Assembly (NCBI GenBank): GCA_947474495.1
Contig: CANJIM010000012.1
Span: 1 to 51,409, forward strand
DNA length: 51,409 bases
Source of the DNA: Rhodospirillaceae bacterium
GTDB taxonomy: Bacteria > Pseudomonadota > Alphaproteobacteria > SMXQ01
Reading direction: 5' to 3'
In this document: one piece after another, positions 17,613-26,998 of the stretch
Position numbering within the stretch: position 1 is the first letter of the stretch
How the letters are laid out: every line of letters starts with the position of its first letter
Made by a program: the position numbers and the translations under genes
Notes under the pieces: model-generated
The model's input: only the letters and a program-made list of their open reading frames with translations
What the model was told of the DNA's origin: nothing
Databases searched by the model: none

Positions 17613-18449
17613 CTACTCGCCGAGCTTCATCAACAGGCCGCGCTGGCGCGCGACGTGGAAGCTGTAGAGAAACAGCGCCGCGCCGATGGCGAGATAGACG
17701 ATATTCAATCCGATGGCGGCGGCGAGATGATCGAGGCGAAAGACGCCATCGAACATCACCGCACGCATGCCTTCGAACACATGGGCCGACGGCAAGGCCC
17801 AGGACAGCGGCTGCAGCCAGGCCGGCAGGCTGGCCACCGGGTAGTAAATGCCCGAGACCGGCGCCAGCGCGAAGATCACGATCCAGGCCAGGCTTTCGGC
17901 TCCGAGGCCGAAGCGCAAGATCAGCGCCGAGATCATCAAGCCGGCCGCCCAGCCCATGATCATCAGATTGGCGAAGAAGGCGAGCAGCGGCAGGCCGAGC
18001 GTGTAGATCGAATAATTGTAGAGCAGGATTGCCAATAGCGACGCCGGGACCACGCCGATCAAGGTGCGGATCAGGCTCATCACCATGAGCGAGACGATCA
18101 TCTCATAAGGGCGCAGCGGGCTGACGAACAGGCTCGCCAGATTGCGCGACCAAATTTCCTCGAGGAACGAGACCGAGACGCCGAGCTGGCCGCGAAACAG
18201 CACGTCCCACAAAATGACGGCAGCGATCAGCACGCCCGACGCCTGCGCCACCCAAGAGGAATTGGTGGCGAGGAACTGGTTGATGAAGCCCCACAGCACC
18301 ATTTGCAGCGTCGGCCAATAGGCCAGCTCGAACAGGCGCGGCCATGAGGTGCGCAGTACATAGACATGGCGCATCACCATGGCGCCGATGCGACGTAGCG
18401 AAAAGGCGCGCGGCCTGGGTGCGAGGCTGGGCAGGCGGGTCATGCTCAT
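17613..18449 (-). CDS. ABC-2 type exporter permease
   Basis: Membrane subunit of an ABC-2 family exporter, 278 aa, with about six hydrophobic helices (for example VLIAAVILWDVLFRG and LAWIVIFALAPVSGIYYPVASLP). The FLEEIWSRNLASLFVSPLRP stretch resembles the cytoplasmic coupling region of ABC-2 permeases such as DrrB and NodJ. The start overlaps the stop of the ATPase gene 18446-19210 in an ATGA, so the two form one exporter operon. The substrate is unknown; drugs, lipids or polysaccharides are the usual cargo. It converges with cobT. Confidence 0.9.
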   Translation of the reverse strand: MSMTRLPSLAPRPRAFSLRRIGAMVMRHVYVLRTSWPRLFELAYWPTLQMVLWGFINQFLATNSSWVAQASGVLIAAVILWDVLFRGQLGVSVSFLEEIWSRNLASLFVSPLRPYEMIVSLMVMSLIRTLIGVVPASLLAILLYNYSIYTLGLPLLAFFANLMIMGWAAGLMISALILRFGLGAESLAWIVIFALAPVSGIYYPVASLPAWLQPLSWALPSAHVFEGMRAVMFDGVFRLDHLAAAIGLNIVYLAIGAALFLYSFHVARQRGLLMKLGE

Positions 18450-19210
18450 TGCGCCGCCTCCGGTGCGACGTCGCCATTGCGGGCGATATGCAAGAACACG
18501 TCTTCCAGATCGTCGCGGCCATAGCGCGCCAACAAGGATTGCGGTGATCCGCGATCGACGATGGTGCCGGCGCGCATGATGGCGACATCGGCGGCCATGC
18601 GCTCAACCTCGGCCATATTGTGGGACGCGAGCAGGATGGCGGCGCCGGTCCGCGCCTGATAGTCCATCAGATAGCTGCGGATCCAATCGGCGGTGTCGGG
18701 ATCGAGCGAGGCGGTCGGCTCGTCGAGCAACAAAATCTCGGGGCGATTGAGCAAAGCCTTCGCCAAGGCAACCCGCGAACGTTGGCCGGCCGAGAGATCG
18801 CCGAGCGGGCGCTTGAGAAAATCGCTGGCCTGCAATTCCTCGCAGACTTCGGCGATGCGCGCGTTGAGGTTCGGCAGATCGTAGAGCCCGCCGTAGACCT
18901 TCAGCACTTCGCGCACGGTCAGGCGGCGCGGCAGGTCGACATAGGGCGAAGAGAAATTGATGCGCGCCAGCACGCGGTGACGGTGACGCAGCATGTCCTC
19001 GCCGAGCAGTTCGATGCTGCCGGCGGTCGGCAGCAGCACGCCGAGCAGCATGGAGATGGTGGTGGTCTTGCCGGCGCCGTTGGCGCCAAGCAGCGCGAAG
19101 GTCGTGCCGACGGCGACATCGAAATCGATGCCATCCACGGCAGTGACATCCTTGTAGCGCTTGGTCAGGCCGCGCACGCGGATCACGGGAAGTTCGGGGG
19201 ACTCGAGCAT
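18446..19210 (-). CDS. ABC exporter ATP-binding protein
   Basis: A 254-aa ATPase with Walker A LLGANGAGKTTTISML, signature LSAGQRSRVALAKALLNRP, Walker B ILLLDEPTASLDP and switch histidine LLASHNMAEVERMA. The DrrA/CcmA-like layout and the coupled ABC-2 permease point to an efflux or surface-molecule exporter. ATG starts at 19210. It is the first gene of the two-gene minus-strand operon, preceded by a 39-nt gap after the truncated HlyD-like frame. Confidence 0.92.
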   Translation of the reverse strand: MLESPELPVIRVRGLTKRYKDVTAVDGIDFDVAVGTTFALLGANGAGKTTTISMLLGVLLPTAGSIELLGEDMLRHRHRVLARINFSSPYVDLPRRLTVREVLKVYGGLYDLPNLNARIAEVCEELQASDFLKRPLGDLSAGQRSRVALAKALLNRPEILLLDEPTASLDPDTADWIRSYLMDYQARTGAAILLASHNMAEVERMAADVAIMRAGTIVDRGSPQSLLARYGRDDLEDVFLHIARNGDVAPEAAQ

Positions 19211-19249
19211 GGCTTTATGTAAGACGGACCCGGGGCTCCGCCAAGCGGC

Positions 19250-20407
19250 TTATCTCTCGCGGAACGAGCTTTCCGTCGTACGGCGCACGCGGTCGGTGAG
19301 ATAGGCGAGGATGGAGCGCTTGTCGATCAGCATGTCGACCTGCCCGAGCATGCCTGGGTAGACGACATGCACGCCAGGCTTGTCACCGAGATAGTTCTTC
19401 TCGGTGACGACCTGGACGACGAAGGTCGGCGGCTGGCCCTGCTGTTCGATGCTGGCATCGGCGGCGATCTGCTGCACGGTGCCGTTGAGATAGCCGAACT
19501 TGGCGAAGTCATAGGTCTGGATCTTGACGATCGCCGGCATGCCGACATGGATGTAGCCGATGTCGTTGTTCGACACGCGGGCTTCCAAGATCAGATGCTC
19601 GTCGACCGGCACGATGCGCATCATCGGCTCGTTCGGCGCGATCGACTGGCCGACGGCGAAGACCGCAAGGTTTTGCACGATGCCATTATCGGGTGACTTG
19701 ATGGCGAGATTGATACGCCGCGAGTTCTGCTGCGCCAGGCCCGATTCGGTGGTGTTGAGCTTGGCCTTGGCATCCGACAGGTCGGACAGGACTTGCGCGA
19801 GGTTCTCGGAGGTCACGCTGGTCAGGCGGTTGCGCGCCTCGGCGAGCGCCGAGGTAGCGACGCGCAATTGCTCTTGCGATTGCACGACCTGGCCGCTGAG
19901 ATCGTTGAGCTGCCGCTGGATCGTCAGGTACTGCAGGCGCGGGAAGTAGCCTTCGCCGGCAAGGCTGCCAACGGCACCTTCCTGTTCGGCGAGGATCTTC
20001 TGGCTCTTCTGCTTGGCCTCGATGTCTTTCTTGAGCGCGCCGACCTCGGTCTCGCGCTGGGTGACGACATTGAGCGCCGCTTGGCGACGCTGCTCGACGG
20101 CTTCGCGCCGGGCATTCAATTGACGCAGCTGCTGCTCGATCACCTGCGGCCAGTCGCGATGAATGTCTTCGGGGAAGATCGGCTCATCTTCGAGCGCTTC
20201 GGCTTCGAGGCGGGCGACCTGGCCGATCAGATCGGCGCGGTCTTTTTGCAGGCGGCTGACGTCTTCGCGCAGCACGTCGGGATCGAGTTCGACGAGCACG
20301 TCGCCGGTTTTGACGGTGTCGCCTTCCTTCACATGCAGCGCGGTGACGCGGCCGCCTTCGGGATGGTTGATGAGTTTCACGCGGCCCGCGGGGCGGACCT
20401 GGGCCAT
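19250..20407 (-). pseudogene. HlyD-family type I secretion adaptor, 5'-truncated
   Basis: About 385 residues of a periplasmic membrane-fusion protein of type I secretion. Recognisable parts are the biotinyl-lipoyl hairpin (GRVKLINHPEGGRV, VKEGDTVKTGDVLVELD), a long helical coiled coil, and the beta-barrel/C-terminal part (SPDNGIVQNLAVFAVGQ, YPGMLGQVDMLIDKRS). HlyD proteins normally begin with a cytoplasmic stretch and a membrane helix; these are missing. Upstream of about 20407 the frame stays open but reads the antisense of an RTX gene fragment, so homology stops there. No T1SS ABC ATPase is adjacent. It could be a true rearrangement or an assembly junction. Confidence 0.75.
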
Positions 20408-20776
20408 GCGTTCGATGCCGGCAACGGCGACGACACGGTGACGGGCAGCGACCTGGCCGACACGATCTTCGGCGGCGACGGCCAGGACACGCTGATCGGC
20501 GGCATGGGCAACGACATCCTCGATCTCGGCGCCGCCGATGGCGATGTCGATACCGTTGTGGCGACGCTGAATGGCGGGGAAGACACGGTGTTCAACTTCG
20601 AGGTCGCGAACGACCAGATCGATGTTTCCGTGTTCGATATCGCTGATTTTAGCGAAATTCAGGCCAATTTTGCGATGAATGGTTCGGATGCGGTCGTGAC
20701 CCTGCCGGGTGGCGTGACCATCACTCTGGTCGGCATCAACGACGACGACCTGAACGCGACACACTTCATCCTCTAA
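20408..20776 (+). pseudogene. RTX (haemolysin-type calcium-binding) protein, C-terminal fragment
   Basis: About 122 residues with RTX nonapeptide repeats GGxGxDxLx (IFGGDGQDTLIGGMGNDIL), then a repeat-like NGGEDTVFNF and a C-terminal tail ending DDLNATHFIL, as expected of the uncleaved type I secretion signal of RTX exoproteins. The frame continues 5' only into sequence antisense to the HlyD-like gene, so the N-terminal passenger is lost and no start codon belongs to it. A good terminator follows, so this is the true 3' end of a former gene. The original substrate (protease, lipase, adhesin) cannot be told. Confidence 0.75.
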
Positions 20777-20798
20777 CGGCGGCAACGCCAGAGGCTGG

Positions 20799-20836
20799 AA
20801 GGCCCGACGCCAGAGATGGTGTCGGGCCTTTCTCTT
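20799..20836 (+). terminator. Rho-independent terminator after RTX fragment
   Basis: GGCCCGAC (20801-20808) pairs perfectly with GTCGGGCC (20821-20828) around a 12-nt loop, followed by TTTCTCTTT. It lies 24 nt after the RTX stop codon and would end plus-strand transcription before gmd. Confidence 0.85.
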
Positions 20837-20889
20837 TAAGTGAGGCGGAAAAGCCTTTAGAAACAACACCTAAGCCCGATAATGCGGGC

Positions 20890-20976: not shown

Positions 20977-22023
20977 ATGAAGAAGGCTTTGATTACCGGC
21001 ATCACCGGCCAGGACGGCGCCTATCTTGCCGATTTCCTGCTGCGCAAGGGCTACACGGTCCACGGCATCATCCGCCGCGCCAGTACCTTCAATACGGATC
21101 GCATCGACAATCTCTATAAGGATCCGCACGATCCGAAGGCCAAGTTGCTGCTGCATTACGGCGACATGACCGACGGCACCAGCCTGCGCCGCATCATCGA
21201 AAAGGTGCAGCCCGACGAGGTCTATAACCTCGGCGCGCAATCGCACGTCAAAGTGTCGTTCGAACAGCCGGAATATACCGCCGACGTGGTCTATATGGGC
21301 GCCCTGCGCCTGCTCGAAGCACTGCGCGACTACATCGAAGTGTCGGATCTGCAGGTGAAGGTCTATCAGGCCGGCTCGTCGGAAATGTACGGCGCCTCGA
21401 AGCCGCCGCAGACTGAGACGACGCCGTTCCATCCGCGCAGCCCCTATGCCGTCAGCAAGCTGGCCGCCCATTGGCTCGGCGTGAACTACCGCGAAGCCTA
21501 CGGCATGTTCATCAGCAACGGCATCCTGTTCAACCACGAGTCGCCGATGCGCGGCGAAACCTTCGTCACGCGCAAGATCACGCGCGCCGTCGGCCGCATC
21601 AAGCTCGGCCTGCAGGACAAGCTCTATCTCGGCAACCTCGACGCCAAGCGCGACTGGGGCTTCGCTGGCGATTATGTCGAAGCGATGTGGCTGATGCTGC
21701 AAGAGGACGAGGCGGACGATTTTGTCGTCTCGACCGGCGAGATGCATTCGGTCAAGGAATTCGCCCATATGGCCTTCAAGCTGGCCGAGCTCGATTGGGA
21801 AAAATACGTCGAGATCGACGAGCGCTATTTCCGCCCGACCGAAGTGGACGCTCTGTGCGGCGATTCGAGCAAGGCGCGCAAGCAGCTCGACTGGGCGCCG
21901 AAGGTCGACTTTCCGACTCTCGTCAAGATGATGGTCGATCACGACATGGAATTGGCCAAGCAGGAAGCGACCCTGAAGGCCGCCGGTCATGAGATCGGCC
22001 TGCGCCAGCTTAAGCAAAGCTAA
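20977..22023 (+). CDS. gmd: GDP-mannose 4,6-dehydratase
   Basis: NADP-dependent short-chain dehydrogenase/reductase that converts GDP-D-mannose to GDP-4-keto-6-deoxy-D-mannose, the precursor of GDP-fucose and related surface sugars. The 348 aa begin with the nucleotide-binding motif [19 protein letters not shown], followed by [24 protein letters not shown], the catalytic region QAGSSEMYG and [12 protein letters not shown] (YxxxK), and [13 protein letters not shown]. The ATG is preceded by GTGAGGATGCG. It is followed by fcl after 38 nt, so the two carry out consecutive steps. Confidence 0.96.
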
Positions 22024-22061
22024 GCGAACGGTCGCGGCCATGCATCGAGGGCGGCTCTGAG

Positions 22062-23021
22062 ATGGACAAGACCAGCCGCATTTTCCTCGCCGGCCACCGC
22101 GGCTTGGTCGGTTCGGCGATTCTCCGCCGCTTGCAGGCCGATGGCTTCGCCAATGTCGTCGTCCGCAGCCGTGCCGAACTTGACCTGACCGACGCGCCCA
22201 ACGTCGATGCCTTTTTCAAAAGCGAGCGGCCGAGCCATGTCTTCATGGCGGCGGCGCGCGTCGGCGGCATCGTCGCCAACAACAGCTTCGGCGCCGATTT
22301 CCTGCGCGTAAACTTGCAGATTCAGACCAATGTCATCGACGCCGCTCACCGCTTCGGTGCGCAGAAGCTGCTGTTTCTCGGCTCGTCCTGCATCTATCCG
22401 AAATTCGCCGCGCAGCCGATCCGCGAGGACAGCCTGCTGACCGGCCCGCTCGAGCCGACCAATGAATCCTACGCCATCGCCAAGATCGCCGGCATTGCCA
22501 TGTGCCAGGCCTATCGCAAGCAGTTCGGCTTCGATGCGATCAGCTTGATGCCGACCAATCTCTACGGACCGAACGACAATTTCGATCTCACCAGCTCGCA
22601 TGTGTTGCCGGCGCTGATGCGCAAGATGCACGAGGCGAAGCTCGCCGGCGCGCCGAGCGTGGCGGTGTGGGGTAGCGGCACGCCGCGCCGCGAGTTCCTG
22701 CATGTCGACGACATGGCGGATGCCTGCCTGTTCCTGATGAACGGCTATTCCTCGGGCGACATCGTCAATGTCGGCGTCGGCGAGGACATCCCGATCGCCG
22801 ATCTCGCCCACCTGATCGCCGAGATCGTCGGCTACAAGGGCGAGTTGGCCTTCGATGCCTCCAAGCCGGATGGCACGCCGCGCAAGCTGCTCGACGTGTC
22901 GCGCCTGACGGCGGCGGGCTGGACGGCGCGAACCCCGTTGCGCGACGGCATCGCCAAGACCTATCGTTGGTATCTCGACCATGTGGCCGCGGGCGACGCG
23001 CGCGGCGTCGCCGCCCAATAG
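22062..23021 (+). CDS. fcl: GDP-L-fucose synthase (epimerase/reductase)
   Basis: Epimerises and reduces GDP-4-keto-6-deoxymannose to GDP-L-fucose. The 319-aa SDR enzyme shows IFLAGHRGLVGSAILRRL at the N-terminus, AARVGGIVANN, the LFLGSSCIYPK active-site serine region and SYAIAKIAGIAMC with the YxxxK pair. GSGTPRREFLHVDDMADACL is typical of the WcaG/Fcl family. Gene order gmd-fcl is the usual one, and hldE follows after 15 nt, which suggests one surface-glycan operon. Confidence 0.95.
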   Translation: MDKTSRIFLAGHRGLVGSAILRRLQADGFANVVVRSRAELDLTDAPNVDAFFKSERPSHVFMAAARVGGIVANNSFGADFLRVNLQIQTNVIDAAHRFGAQKLLFLGSSCIYPKFAAQPIREDSLLTGPLEPTNESYAIAKIAGIAMCQAYRKQFGFDAISLMPTNLYGPNDNFDLTSSHVLPALMRKMHEAKLAGAPSVAVWGSGTPRREFLHVDDMADACLFLMNGYSSGDIVNVGVGEDIPIADLAHLIAEIVGYKGELAFDASKPDGTPRKLLDVSRLTAAGWTARTPLRDGIAKTYRWYLDHVAAGDARGVAAQ

Positions 23022-23036
23022 GCCCAGCAGGATTAC

Positions 23037-24512
23037 ATGACGGCAAGCCCCCTCAACGACGCCTCGGCCCTGGCGCAAGCGCTCGAACGCTTGAGCGCGG
23101 CGCGCGTCGTCGTCGTCGGCGACGCCATGCTCGACCGCTTCATCTATGGCGAGGTTGAGCGCATCTCGCCGGAAGCGCCAATCCCGGTGCTGCGCGAGAC
23201 GCGCGAGACGGCGATGGCCGGCGGTGCCGGCAATGTGGCGCGCAACGTAGCTTCGCTCGGTGCAGTCGTCGATTTTGTGTCTTTGATCGGTGACGATGCT
23301 GCAGGCCGAGAACTAAGTTCGATGCTTGCGGCTGAAGCTGGCATCAAGCCGATTCTTGAGGTTCTCGGCGGGCACTTCACTACGGTTAAGACTCGCTACA
23401 TCGCCGGCCACCAGCAGATGCTGCGCGCTGATCGTGAACGCCCCTTCGGTGTTCCGCAAGCGTTGCAGACGCAAATTGCCCAGGGCGTCCATGGGCTGCT
23501 CGGCAAAGCCGGTGCCCTGGTGTTGTCGGATTACGGCAAGGGCGTGCTGGCGCCGAACGGCGCCGCCGAACTGATCGCCGCGGCGCGCAAGGCCGGTGTG
23601 CCAGTCGTCGTCGATCCCAAGGGCACGGATTTTACGCGCTATGGCGGCGCCACGGTGGTGACGCCGAACCGCAAGGAATTGCAGGCCGCGACCGGCATGG
23701 CGACCGACAGCGATGACGCCATCATCGCCGCCGCCCGCAAGTTGATCGGCGATTGCGGCATCGATTACGTGTTGGCGACGCGCAGCGCCGACGGCATGAG
23801 CTTGATCGGCGCGGCCGACGTGCACCATCTGCCGGCCGAAGCGCGCGAAGTGTTCGATGTCTCGGGCGCCGGCGACACGGTGGTTGCCACGGTCGCCGCC
23901 GCGCTCGCCGCCGGCGTATCGCTGCTCGACGCCGCTCGGCTCGCCAATGTCGCCGCCGGCATTGTCGTCGGCAAGGTCGGCACAGCCGTCGCGCGCCGCG
24001 CCGAAATCGCCGACGCGCTGCATGCCGGCGATTTGATGCGCGGCGAACGCAAGCTCGCCGGTCTCGATGCCGCGCTCGATCATGTCGCCCGCTGGCGCCG
24101 CCAAGGCCTGCGCGTCGGCTTCACCAACGGCTGCTTCGATCTCTTGCATCCCGGCCATGTCCATCTGCTCGAACAGGCGCGCGCCGCCTGCGACCGGTTG
24201 GTGATCGGCCTCAACAGCGACGCCTCGGTCAAGCGGCTGAAAGGCGAGACGCGGCCGATTCAGTCGGAAGCCGCCCGCGCCGTGATGCTCGGCTCGCTCG
24301 CCACGGTGGATCTCGTCGTGCTATTCGCCGATGACACGCCGATCTCGCTGATCGAGGCGCTCAAGCCCGATGTTCTCGTCAAAGGCGCCGACTATGCGTT
24401 GAAGGACGTCGTCGGTGGCGCCTTCGTGCAATCATATGGTGGCAAGGTCGTGCTCGCCGAATTGGTCCCCGGCCAAAGCACCACGGCGACGATCTCGCGC
24501 ATGGCGCGTTAA
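23037..24512 (+). CDS. hldE: Bifunctional heptose 7-phosphate kinase / heptose 1-phosphate adenylyltransferase
   Basis: Provides ADP-D-glycero-D-manno-heptose for lipopolysaccharide core or other surface glycans. The 491-aa protein has a ribokinase-like kinase domain (residues about 1-330: VVVGDAMLDRFIYGEVERISPEAP, MAGGAGNVARNVA, catalytic GAGD at 277-280). A cytidylyltransferase-like domain follows (about 355-491: FTNGCFDLLHPGHVHLLEQA, VKGADYALKDVVGG, STTATISRM). The fused arrangement and length match E. coli HldE. An AGGA precedes the ATG. Full length. Confidence 0.96.
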   Translation: MTASPLNDASALAQALERLSAARVVVVGDAMLDRFIYGEVERISPEAPIPVLRETRETAMAGGAGNVARNVASLGAVVDFVSLIGDDAAGRELSSMLAAEAGIKPILEVLGGHFTTVKTRYIAGHQQMLRADRERPFGVPQALQTQIAQGVHGLLGKAGALVLSDYGKGVLAPNGAAELIAAARKAGVPVVVDPKGTDFTRYGGATVVTPNRKELQAATGMATDSDDAIIAAARKLIGDCGIDYVLATRSADGMSLIGAADVHHLPAEAREVFDVSGAGDTVVATVAAALAAGVSLLDAARLANVAAGIVVGKVGTAVARRAEIADALHAGDLMRGERKLAGLDAALDHVARWRRQGLRVGFTNGCFDLLHPGHVHLLEQARAACDRLVIGLNSDASVKRLKGETRPIQSEAARAVMLGSLATVDLVVLFADDTPISLIEALKPDVLVKGADYALKDVVGGAFVQSYGGKVVLAELVPGQSTTATISRMAR

Positions 24513-24535: not shown

Positions 24536-25588
24536 ATGGCAAGCGCTCTCCCCCATCTCTGGCATTTTTTGCTGAACCCGGCGCAGGTGATGAGCGCAGC
24601 AGATGCCGCGCGCTTGCAGCCGGCGATGGCGCGGCTCGCCATGCTGTCGTCACCGGCGACGGCAGACTGGCTGCTTCAGCCGGTTGTGCCGCCGGGCCAC
24701 ATGGCCGTCGCTCCGCAAGATGTGCTTCGCGATCGATTGCAAACCCGCTATCTGCGGGCCGAGACGCGGCGTTGGCTCGCTGCCATCGCCGCCGCCGGCA
24801 TTGAGGTTTTGCCGCTCAAGGGCTTCGCCACCGGTCTGGCGATTTATCCCGAAGCGGAATTGCGCGGGCTGGGCGATGTCGACCTTCTCGTGCGGCAAGC
24901 CGATCTCGCGCCGCTCGTGCGGTTTTTGCGTGTGCAGGGCTTCGTCTTTCGCTTGGCGCAGGGAGCGCAGGTCTGGGGCCTGATCAGCGACGCGAGTTTT
25001 CATCCCTTCGTCGCGCCGGACCGTCAGCTGTCGTTCGATCTGCATGTGCATCCCGACGATTTTCCGCTGCACCGCTCGCTGTCGACGTCGGACGTATTTA
25101 GCGCGGCGCGCGCGGTGACCGATGCGGCGATGGCGCTGCGCATTCCGTGCGATACGCATGTGTTGCTGATGGCGATGAGCCACGCGGCGCGCGACAAATA
25201 TGACCCCAGCGCCGTGCGGAGTGTCGTCGATATGGCGGTGATGATGACGCGGATGGATCAGCCGCCGGATTGGCCGGCGCTCGCGGCGCTGGCTGAGGCG
25301 GGCGGTAATCGCCGCATCCTGCGCTTGGCGGTGCAAGTTTTGCACGGCTTGGGCTTGTCGGCGGAAGCAATCCCGGCGGATTTGCAACGTCCTTTCCGCG
25401 GCCTCGCCGGGTGGGAATTGACCAGGGTGATCGGCGAACTTGCCGATCTGTTTGCCGCGCCGTCGGGAAAATGGGCGTTGCAGCGGCGTGAATGGCTGCT
25501 TACCGGCGGGCCACAGGTTGCGGCCTGGCGCACGGCGCGGCGCTTGCGCGGATTGGTGCGGCCGTGGAGCGGCGTGCCGGAGCTCTAG
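24536..25588 (+). CDS. Nucleotidyltransferase-family protein of a peptide-modification locus (HPr-rel-A-like)
   Basis: 350 aa, related to the uncharacterised nucleotidyltransferase family (Pfam NTP_transf_5 type). Residues 90-119 carry the family core: LPLKG at 92-96 and GDVDLLV at 113-119, with two acidic residues (Asp114, Asp116) that would bind metal. Homologues occur in lasso-peptide clusters such as the paeninodin cluster and in predicted HPr-rel-A loci beside PqqD-like and HprK-like proteins, as here. Its substrate is not known. It lies 23 nt after hldE and converges with the PqqD-like gene, overlapping it by 4 nt, so the partners are on opposite strands. Confidence 0.8.
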   Translation: MASALPHLWHFLLNPAQVMSAADAARLQPAMARLAMLSSPATADWLLQPVVPPGHMAVAPQDVLRDRLQTRYLRAETRRWLAAIAAAGIEVLPLKGFATGLAIYPEAELRGLGDVDLLVRQADLAPLVRFLRVQGFVFRLAQGAQVWGLISDASFHPFVAPDRQLSFDLHVHPDDFPLHRSLSTSDVFSAARAVTDAAMALRIPCDTHVLLMAMSHAARDKYDPSAVRSVVDMAVMMTRMDQPPDWPALAALAEAGGNRRILRLAVQVLHGLGLSAEAIPADLQRPFRGLAGWELTRVIGELADLFAAPSGKWALQRREWLLTGGPQVAAWRTARRLRGLVRPWSGVPEL

Positions 25589-25854
25589 ATTTTCTCGATT
25601 AAGGCGCGTTGGTGCAACTCGGCGATGAAGCGTTGCACGTCGGCGTCGATGGCCTCACGCGGCACATCGGGGTAGGCGAGGGCCAAGGCGTCGCCGGCGG
25701 CTTCGGCGCTGCTCTGTTCGGCGAGAAGGCGCCACAGCGCGGCCGCGATGGCATTGAGATGATAAATCTCGCCACTCTCAGGCAGCACGACAAAAAGATC
25801 GGTATCGACCGGCGTTTCCTTTACGCCAGAGCGGCGGCACCACAGGTCCGTCAT
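25585..25854 (-). CDS. PqqD-family peptide-binding protein
   Basis: An 89-aa PqqD-like protein. It shows the expected pattern: a beta-hairpin start (VDTDLFVVLPESGEIYHLNAIAAALW) followed by the helical LLAEQSSAEAAGDALALAYPDVPREAIDADVQRFIAELHQRALI. PqqD-like domains bind leader peptides of ribosomally made, modified peptides and present them to enzymes. The ATG overlaps the stop of the HprK-like gene (ATGA), so it is co-translated with the presumed kinase. PqqD itself is unlikely, because no pqq genes are near. Confidence 0.82.
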   Translation of the reverse strand: MTDLWCRRSGVKETPVDTDLFVVLPESGEIYHLNAIAAALWRLLAEQSSAEAAGDALALAYPDVPREAIDADVQRFIAELHQRALIEKI

Positions 25855-26726
25855 GCGCTAAGCCTATGGCTGATGCTATTGGCGCCACGCGCTTGCGCCA
25901 TGAGGAGAGCGATGGCTTCGTCGATATCGTTGTAGCTTAAGCGCCAGCAGTGCGCGGCGGCGGTCAGCGCGGCGAAGCGCTCGACCATCTCGGCGGCCGG
26001 CGGCCGCGCGCCGAAATTCTGCTGCAGTAGGAGTTTGATGATTTCGCTGCGCGATGCCGTGGTCAGAGCGGCAGGACCAGTGGCGCGTTCGAGGCGCACG
26101 AAAGCTGTGATGGGGCGCCGTTCGCCGAGTGGCGCCAACTGTTCGCCCGTGAGGGCGACATAGCCATAGCGGGAATTGCGCGAGGCCATACGGTGGAGCA
26201 AGGCGTCGCGCCGATGGTCTCCCAGCGCGTCCGGCAGCGGCAGGCGCGGGCGCGGTGCCAGGCCGATGGCGACGGCGTTAGCGGTCGGACTGCTCAGATC
26301 GATTGGCAGCACGTCGTCGCTGTAAATCCGTCCGCCGGCGGTGGCGAGGGCGGCGGTCAATGTGCTTTTGCCAGCTTGGCTTTCAGCGGGAAAGACGAAC
26401 AAAGGGGCTGCCGGACCTTGTCCGATGGCGACGGCGCCGGCATGCAGACACAACAGGCGCGAGTCGGCCTCGACATAAGCGAGCACCAGATCGGCGAGCA
26501 GGGCGCAGAGGATGTCCGCCGGATTGTCGTAGACGGCCGGAGTTGGCGTCCATTGCGAGACGATTCGCCAGCCAGCCTTATCAGCGGCCACGGAGATGAT
26601 GGGGGCGCTGGCATCTTGCGTGACTTGCCAGCGCCATCCTTGGCTGATGGCGGCCAGGCGGTCGAGCAGATCGACGCAATCGTCAAAGGCGATGGGGCGC
26701 GGGATGCCTTGAAATTGGACGCGCAT
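25851..26726 (-). CDS. HPr-kinase-like protein (HprK-related kinase A type)
   Basis: 291 aa. A P-loop AESQAGKSTLTAALA lies at residues 114-128 and a double aspartate in RIYSDDVLPI at 137-138, the arrangement of the HprK/PEP carboxykinase-like fold. The N-terminal 110 residues include LLCLHAGAVA, common in HprK relatives. True HprK phosphorylates HPr Ser46; relatives in lasso clusters phosphorylate a peptide C-terminal serine. Here no HPr is near and the gene follows a small peptide gene by 14 nt, so the peptide is the most likely substrate (inference). ATG 26724-26726 was chosen; a longer reading would overlap the peptide gene. Confidence 0.82.
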   Translation of the reverse strand: MRVQFQGIPRPIAFDDCVDLLDRLAAISQGWRWQVTQDASAPIISVAADKAGWRIVSQWTPTPAVYDNPADILCALLADLVLAYVEADSRLLCLHAGAVAIGQGPAAPLFVFPAESQAGKSTLTAALATAGGRIYSDDVLPIDLSSPTANAVAIGLAPRPRLPLPDALGDHRRDALLHRMASRNSRYGYVALTGEQLAPLGERRPITAFVRLERATGPAALTTASRSEIIKLLLQQNFGARPPAAEMVERFAALTAAAHCWRLSYNDIDEAIALLMAQARGANSISHRLSA

Positions 26727-26740
26727 CGCCCGTCCCGGCG

Positions 26741-26965
26741 TCAGCTTTTCTTTTTTGGTTCTGTCGGTTCGGTTGGACGCGACGGCCGGCCCCACGGCGG
26801 GCCGCCCTGGGCCTTCGCTTCGGTTAAGGACAGCAGGGTCGGCGCGGCATAGGCGGTACCCGCGGCCAAGCCCAGGCGCGCCAAGGCTTGGCGGCGGTTG
26901 AGGGCCACAGGGGCTTCGGGTTCGGTAGGCGCCTGGGGAAGTGGCGCACGATCATCGGACTTCAT
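26741..26965 (-). CDS. Small twin-arginine-led peptide with Pro-rich, Ser-ending tail; candidate modified peptide
   Basis: 74 aa, not a known family to me. Residues 1-21 are acidic and Pro-rich. Residues 22-52 look like a Tat signal: LNRRQALARLGLAAG, a hydrophobic run, then TEAKA before Gln53, a plausible signal-peptidase site. The remaining 22 residues are rich in Pro, Gly and charged residues and end in KKKS with serine last. An ATG at 26963-26965 with GGAGGA 5 nt upstream is preferred to an in-frame start at 26998. The next genes are the HprK-like kinase (14 nt downstream) and PqqD-like protein, so it may be their target. Export by Tat and phosphorylation are inferences. Confidence 0.72.
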   Translation of the reverse strand: MKSDDRAPLPQAPTEPEAPVALNRRQALARLGLAAGTAYAAPTLLSLTEAKAQGGPPWGRPSRPTEPTEPKKKS

Positions 26966-26998
26966 CACAGTCCTCCATTCTTTGTCCTGACCAGTCAT

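What the first reader, a model, noticed from the sequence alone, without database searches (positions are those of the whole stretch)
24536..26965. Minimal HprK/PqqD/nucleotidyltransferase system with its own twin-arginine peptide ending in serine
Seen: a 74-aa peptide gene, an HprK-like gene 14 nt later, an ATGA-coupled PqqD-like gene, and a convergent nucleotidyltransferase. The peptide has an RR signal-like segment, a likely cut after AKA, and a 22-residue Pro-rich tail whose last residue is serine. Known: PqqD-like domains bind leader peptides. HprK relatives in the paeninodin lasso-peptide cluster phosphorylate the peptide's C-terminal serine, and a nucleotidyltransferase accompanies them. 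Inference: this locus modifies the peptide by phosphorylation or nucleotidylation of the terminal serine and may export it folded by Tat, without any macrocyclase. Adjacent surface-glycan genes hint at attachment to the envelope.
Basis: partly seen in the sequence, partly recalled or inferred. Interest (0 to 1): 0.88.

Follow-up and report, generated by a model that had tools for sequence, protein, structure and literature searches.

The report
Tat-exported linear phosphopeptide system
The locus encodes a short secreted peptide whose export signal also carries the docking motif for a modifying kinase complex; the same set recurs across many proteobacteria and looks like a Tat-exported counterpart of the linear phosphorylated peptides described in 2026 from Bacillota.

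Summary
In 385 sampled alphaproteobacterial genomes the peptide and the kinase occur together (32 both, 2 kinase only, 3 peptide only). In 398 genomes of the wider phylum they occur in exactly the same 8. The only two kinases without a peptide have lost the H-K-D-D active site. All 39 well-formed peptides carry YxxPx[L/I/V] at a fixed distance from the RR pair, inside the Tat signal. This is the motif that lasso-peptide RREs and LppB bind, and the RRE residues that contact it are largely conserved. Ordinary Tat signals lack it (0 of about 30). Tails are variable, low-complexity and Ser/Thr-bearing. The C-terminal residue is not conserved (Ser in 4 of 39), so the terminal-serine idea fails. The closest known system is LPP (linear polyphosphorylated peptides, Bacillota, Nat Commun 2026), with Tat export in place of the LPP peptidase and exporter. 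Best reading: an RRE-guided kinase phosphorylates Ser/Thr in the tail, the nucleotidyltransferase may decorate the phosphate, and Tat exports the product near envelope glycans. No chemistry is shown here. New variant of a known kind.

The parts
26741..26965 (-). 74-aa precursor peptide with Tat-type signal
   Evidence: SD at 26972-26976; purifying selection; homologues in more than 30 genomes
26810..26896 (-). Conserved Tat-type segment RRQALARLGLAAGTAYAAPTLLSLTEAKA (residues 24-52), ending in AxA
   Evidence: RR, L, G, Y and P invariant in 31 aligned sequences
26834..26851 (-). YAAPTL = YxxPx[LIV], the predicted RRE-binding motif (residues 39-44)
   Evidence: 39 of 39 peptides, Tyr 15 residues after the first Arg in 38 of 39; 0 of 41 control segments; the same motif is bound by lasso RREs and LppB (PMC13381572)
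26744..26809 (-). Tail QGGPPWGRPSRPTEPTEPKKKS, the predicted core with Ser/Thr acceptors
   Evidence: Variable between genomes but Ser/Thr-bearing; the Ser of RPSRP is kept in L022 while the terminal Ser becomes Thr
25851..26726 (-). HprK-like kinase
   Evidence: TIGR04352 E=1.6e-11, sub-threshold; H95, K120, D137, D138 kept in 42 of 44; aligns with HPr kinase 3tqf
25585..25854 (-). PqqD-like RRE
   Evidence: PF05402; nearest solved structures are the lasso RRE TbiB1 and LppB; D72 and N34 align with LppB D70 and N33
24536..25588 (+). NTP_transf_5-family nucleotidyltransferase, optional partner
   Evidence: PF14907 E=4.5e-27; tail-to-tail with PqqD in L022-L025, L043 and L122
27018..27046 (-). 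Promoter-like site TAGACA-17-TATATT
   Evidence: lies in a block conserved in the congener
20977..24512 (+). GDP-mannose dehydratase, GDP-fucose synthase and HldE (glycan precursor genes)
   Evidence: hldE is also near the peptide in 12 other fetched loci
17613..20869 (-). ABC-2 permease and ATPase plus HlyD-type adaptor; conserved neighbours of uncertain relevance
   Evidence: homologues near HprK in many distant loci

Best explanation
This is a biosynthetic locus for a linear, phosphorylated, Tat-exported peptide. Shown by sequence: the peptide, the kinase and the RRE form one co-inherited set, and the Tat-type signal contains the RRE-binding motif YxxPx[LIV]. Inferred: before export, the PqqD/RRE holds the peptide by YxxP, which also masks the hydrophobic core of the signal. 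The HprK-like kinase phosphorylates one or more Ser/Thr residues in the tail. Where present, the nucleotidyltransferase adds a sugar or nucleotide to the phosphate. The peptide is then released, exported by Tat and cut after AxA by signal peptidase. The tail ends up in the periplasm or envelope, possibly with surface glycans.
For: Co-occurrence: 32 of 34 kinase genomes and 32 of 35 peptide genomes in 385 Alphaproteobacteria; 8 of 8 in 398 of the phylum. It holds when the genes are 25-120 kb apart or on other contigs. The two kinases without a peptide are the only two lacking H-K-D-D. YxxPx[LIV] occurs in 39 of 39 peptides at fixed spacing and in 0 control Tat segments. The RRE resembles TbiB1 and LppB. 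The residue that hydrogen-bonds the leader Tyr is kept in 30 of 31. HprK and PqqD are fused in several lineages, including Shinella. TatC is present in 16 of 16. Related HprK-like kinases phosphorylate Ser in paeninodin and LPP precursors, and PsmN adds hexoses to phospho-Ser (PMC9266682; PMC13381572).
Against: No biochemistry. No conserved acceptor position in the tails. Three genomes have a peptide hit without a strong kinase: G123, G383, and G241, whose peptide lacks YxxP and whose kinase hit is weak. No PqqD was found beside HprK in family f98 or in G308. Tat rather than Sec use is inferred from the RR pair. The nucleotidyltransferase is missing from many loci. The kinase scores far below the curated cut-off of its nearest named family. 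The structure model was uninformative.
Confidence: 0.66

Rival explanations
1. Paeninodin-like use of the terminal residue: the kinase phosphorylates or the transferase nucleotidylates the C-terminal Ser/Thr of the peptide.
For: The window peptide ends in Ser and the congener in Thr. Lasso-associated HprK kinases act on a C-terminal Ser (PMC9266682).
Against: Only 5 of 39 peptides end in Ser or Thr; others end in R, K, H, Q, P, C, A, G and more. In LPP the site is Ser3 of the core, not the end.
Confidence: 0.08
2. The peptide is exported, but the modification is not mainly phosphorylation: kinase and nucleotidyltransferase (and TPR-methyltransferases in some loci) build a phosphosugar link that attaches the peptide to an exopolysaccharide or LPS heptose.
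For: The nucleotidyltransferase, hldE, gmd/fcl and glycosyltransferases lie in or near the cluster in several families. PsmN adds hexoses to phospho-Ser. LPP loci sit in capsule clusters.
Against: Kinase-RRE fusions on the Shinella plasmid and in family f201 lack the nucleotidyltransferase and nearby glycan genes. hldE is also a normal LPS gene.
Confidence: 0.2
3. The peptide is an ordinary small Tat protein and the HprK/PqqD pair acts on something else; the association is regulatory or metabolic.
For: Small Tat proteins of unknown role are common (general knowledge). RegA-like regulators sit beside HprK in some genomes (ORF reading).
Against: Near one-to-one co-occurrence even when the genes are unlinked. 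YxxP is invariant in these peptides and absent in control Tat signals. RRE pocket residues are conserved.
Confidence: 0.06

Closest known systems
Linear polyphosphorylated peptides (LPP; lppA-K-B-S-D-N of Paenibacillus alginolyticus, PMC13381572)
   Same: Discrete RRE, HprK-like kinase, nucleotidyltransferase, no macrocyclase, 1-3 precursors, conserved N-terminal leader with YxxPx[V/L], variable C-terminus, polysaccharide loci
   Different: No SpI-like LppS peptidase or MsbA-like LppD exporter in the locus; the leader is a Tat-type signal; kinase and RRE are often fused; Pseudomonadota instead of Bacillota
Paeninodin / pseudomycoidin lasso-peptide clusters (PadeK, PsmK, PsmN; PMC9266682)
   Same: HprK-like kinase with H-K-D-D residues, RRE, nucleotidyltransferase homologue
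   Different: No lasso cyclase or B2 protease in the locus, no conserved C-terminal Ser, Tyr instead of Trp in the leader motif
NCBIfam HPr-rel-A system (TIGR04352 kinase, TIGR04353 PqqD)
   Same: HprK-like, PqqD-like and nucleotidyltransferase-like genes in glycan clusters; here also found to have a Tat-like small gene upstream
   Different: Window kinase and PqqD score far below the cut-offs (43.9/200 and 17.3/35 bits); their peptides lack the Tyr and have long Cys-containing tails
Sec-signal RiPPs (DUF2063/DUF2282 type; PMC12710340)
   Same: Signal peptide on a RiPP precursor with an RRE-type partner
   Different: Sec rather than Tat; different enzymes; no RRE motif recognised there

Membership tests
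LPP (linear polyphosphorylated peptides) | Discrete RRE related to lasso RREs, with YxxP-binding residues | tested here: met
   nearest TbiB1 and LppB; D72 and N34 aligned to D70 and N33
LPP (linear polyphosphorylated peptides) | HprK-like kinase with H-K-D-D | tested here: met
LPP (linear polyphosphorylated peptides) | NTP transferase in the cluster | tested here: met
   (window); optional in relatives
LPP (linear polyphosphorylated peptides) | Precursor with YxxPx[V/L] leader and variable C-terminus | tested here: met
   the rest of the LPP consensus (HQxIxFET) is absent
LPP (linear polyphosphorylated peptides) | SpI-like leader peptidase LppS | tested here: not met
   No such gene among the annotated neighbours, about 13-36 kb of the window
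LPP (linear polyphosphorylated peptides) | MsbA-like exporter LppD | tested here: not met
   Only DrrAB-type ABC-2 genes and HlyD nearby
LPP (linear polyphosphorylated peptides) | Phosphate on core Ser | not testable with these tools
   Needs mass spectrometry
HPr-rel-A (TIGR04352/TIGR04353) | Kinase above 200 bits | tested here: not met
   43.9 bits; relatives 29-53 bits
HPr-rel-A (TIGR04352/TIGR04353) | PqqD above 35 bits | tested here: not met
   17.3 bits
Paeninodin-type lasso peptide | Lasso cyclase and B2 leader protease | tested here: not met
   None among the annotated neighbours
Paeninodin-type lasso peptide | C-terminal Ser conserved | tested here: not met
   Ser in 4 of 39
Tat substrate | RR motif, hydrophobic stretch, AxA, TatC in genome | tested here: met
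   actual transport not tested

The most novel reading that the evidence does not exclude
A Tat signal peptide doubles as a RiPP leader: the RRE binds YxxP within the hydrophobic core of the signal, so it both guides the kinase and holds back export until modification is complete, as Tat proofreading chaperones do. This would define a broad class of Tat-exported phospho- or phosphoglyco-peptides in Pseudomonadota, and would also supply the missing substrates of the annotated but uncharacterised HPr-rel-A systems.
Probability: 0.5. Interest if true: 0.86.

Novelty: new variant of a known kind. Interest (0 to 1): 0.74.

Why it matters
It would extend linear phosphorylated RiPPs, reported in 2026 and described as restricted to Bacillota, to Pseudomonadota, with a different export route. 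It would give substrates to HprK/PqqD pairs that databases name without knowing what they act on. It offers a direct test of whether one signal peptide can serve both as Tat signal and RRE leader, and whether modification gates export. The link to exopolysaccharide loci suggests a role in envelope or biofilm chemistry.

Tried and rejected
C-terminal Ser as conserved site: rejected. AlphaFold model of HprK: two-sequence alignment, pLDDT 35, useless, so no fold search was run. HPr-rel-A membership: scores below cut-offs. Chance YxxP in Tat signals: 41 RR segments from PF10518 loci, of which about 30 are real signals, none with YxxP in the tested span. Peptide-only genomes G123 and G383: their weak kinase hits are canonical HPr kinases, beside RapZ-like and PTS genes as read from the ORFs. 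Peptides in kinase-only G114 and G195: none. Literature for a Tat signal with RRE and HprK: none found in the held library. Whole own genome as file: not available.

Full report
Observation. On the minus strand: a 74-aa peptide (26965-26741, with GGAGG just upstream), 14 nt, an HprK-like gene (26726-25851), and an ATGA-coupled PqqD-like gene (25854-25585). On the plus strand, convergent: an NTP_transf_5 gene (24536-25588). The peptide is a selected gene: against the congener L022, 38 codons differ, 30 of them silently, and 34 of 44 base differences are at third positions. Its upstream promoter-like block is conserved.

Homologous loci. In relatives the peptide lies upstream of HprK. Profiles were then run over 385 alphaproteobacterial genomes. 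A strong kinase (E<1e-20) occurs in 34 genomes and a peptide in 35; 32 have both (Fisher p=7e-41, overstated because genomes are related, but more than 15 families are involved). The peptide profile was built from peptides next to HprK. The genome-wide scan still finds them only with the kinase when they lie 25-120 kb away or on another contig. In 398 genomes of the phylum, peptide (E<=1e-5) and strong kinase (E<1e-30) hit the same 8 genomes, four of them from another class. The only two strong kinases without a peptide (G114, G195) are the only two of 44 without the H-K-D-D residues.

The motif. In 39 of 39 well-formed peptides the Tat-type segment reads RRxxLxxxG...YxxPx[LIV]...AxA. The Tyr sits 15 residues after the first Arg in 38 and 18 in one. 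About 30 ordinary Tat signals from the same groups have no YxxP in that span. [Y/W]xxPx[LVIAFY] is the motif bound by discrete lasso RREs and by LppB, with crystal structures (PMC13381572). By phmmer the window PqqD aligns best with TbiB1 and LppB. LppB D70, which hydrogen-bonds the leader Tyr, aligns with D72 (30 of 31 in the family). LppB N33, which fixes the kink at Pro, aligns with N34 (Asn or Asp in 30 of 31). The hydrophobic pocket positions are conserved in kind, except F76, which is often Ala or Leu. This predicts a Tyr-type leader.

Tails. After AxA the tails are low-complexity (Gly/Ser, Pro-Ser, Pro-Thr-Lys, Arg-rich, some with two Cys). They carry Ser/Thr in 38 of 39 by parser; the exception is a parsing cut (L114, RPSRPC). 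C-terminal residues vary. In the window and its congener the Ser of RPSRP is kept while the last residue changes from Ser to Thr.

Enzymes. The kinase aligns with HPr kinases around the Walker and DD motifs. Lasso-type kinases need the same four residues (PMC9266682). LppK adds 1-4 phosphates to one core Ser, and PsmN adds hexoses to phospho-Ser. The nucleotidyltransferase is present in or near the cluster in several families but absent beside the kinase-RRE fusions. On a Shinella plasmid the pair is annotated 'hypothetical protein' and 'PqqD family protein'.

Setting. The window has gmd, fcl and hldE on one side. hldE is near the peptide in 12 other fetched loci. Homologues of the window's ABC-2 pair and HlyD recur near HprK. 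In G308 about 39 kb of polysaccharide genes lie between kinase and peptide (by ORF reading). LPP loci are also in capsule clusters.

Judgement. The set works like LPP biosynthesis, but lacks two of its defining parts (SpI peptidase, MsbA-like exporter), apparently replaced by Tat and signal peptidase. It is therefore a variant and not a member. Shown: gene set, co-inheritance, motif, conserved residues. Inferred: binding, phosphorylation, role of the nucleotidyltransferase, export, envelope location.

Noticed in passing
L207-L216 (HPr-rel-A loci): Curated HPr-rel-A systems also have a Tat-like small gene (RRRxLIKGL...P[VMA]xxTL...ALA, about 130-residue Cys-containing tail) near PqqD in about 10 of 12 loci; it matches nothing in Pfam or NCBIfam where tested.
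   Followed up: partly
L115 (G195), L116 (G114): HprK-like proteins that have lost the H-K-D-D residues, in genomes without the peptide.
   Followed up: partly
window 17613-20869 and loci L029, L031, L033, L097, L103, L110, L111, L116, L130, L132, L133: A DrrAB-like ABC-2 pair, often with a HlyD adaptor, recurs near HprK or the peptide across families.
   Followed up: partly
L120, L123, L099, L032: TPR proteins fused to methyltransferase or 2OG-oxygenase domains lie next to the peptide or kinase; possible extra modifiers.
   Followed up: no
L097, L031, L033: A RegA-like response regulator (with RegB-like kinase in L097) lies directly upstream of HprK, judged from the ORF sequences.
   Followed up: no
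L120, L121, L123, L124 (family f98): Peptide and HprK without a detectable PqqD beside them; tails with PSPC...C and PSGPSRP repeats.
   Followed up: no
L135 (G241), L034 (G011): Tat-type peptides without YxxP lie near weakly matching HprK genes; they resemble the HPr-rel-A peptides.
   Followed up: no
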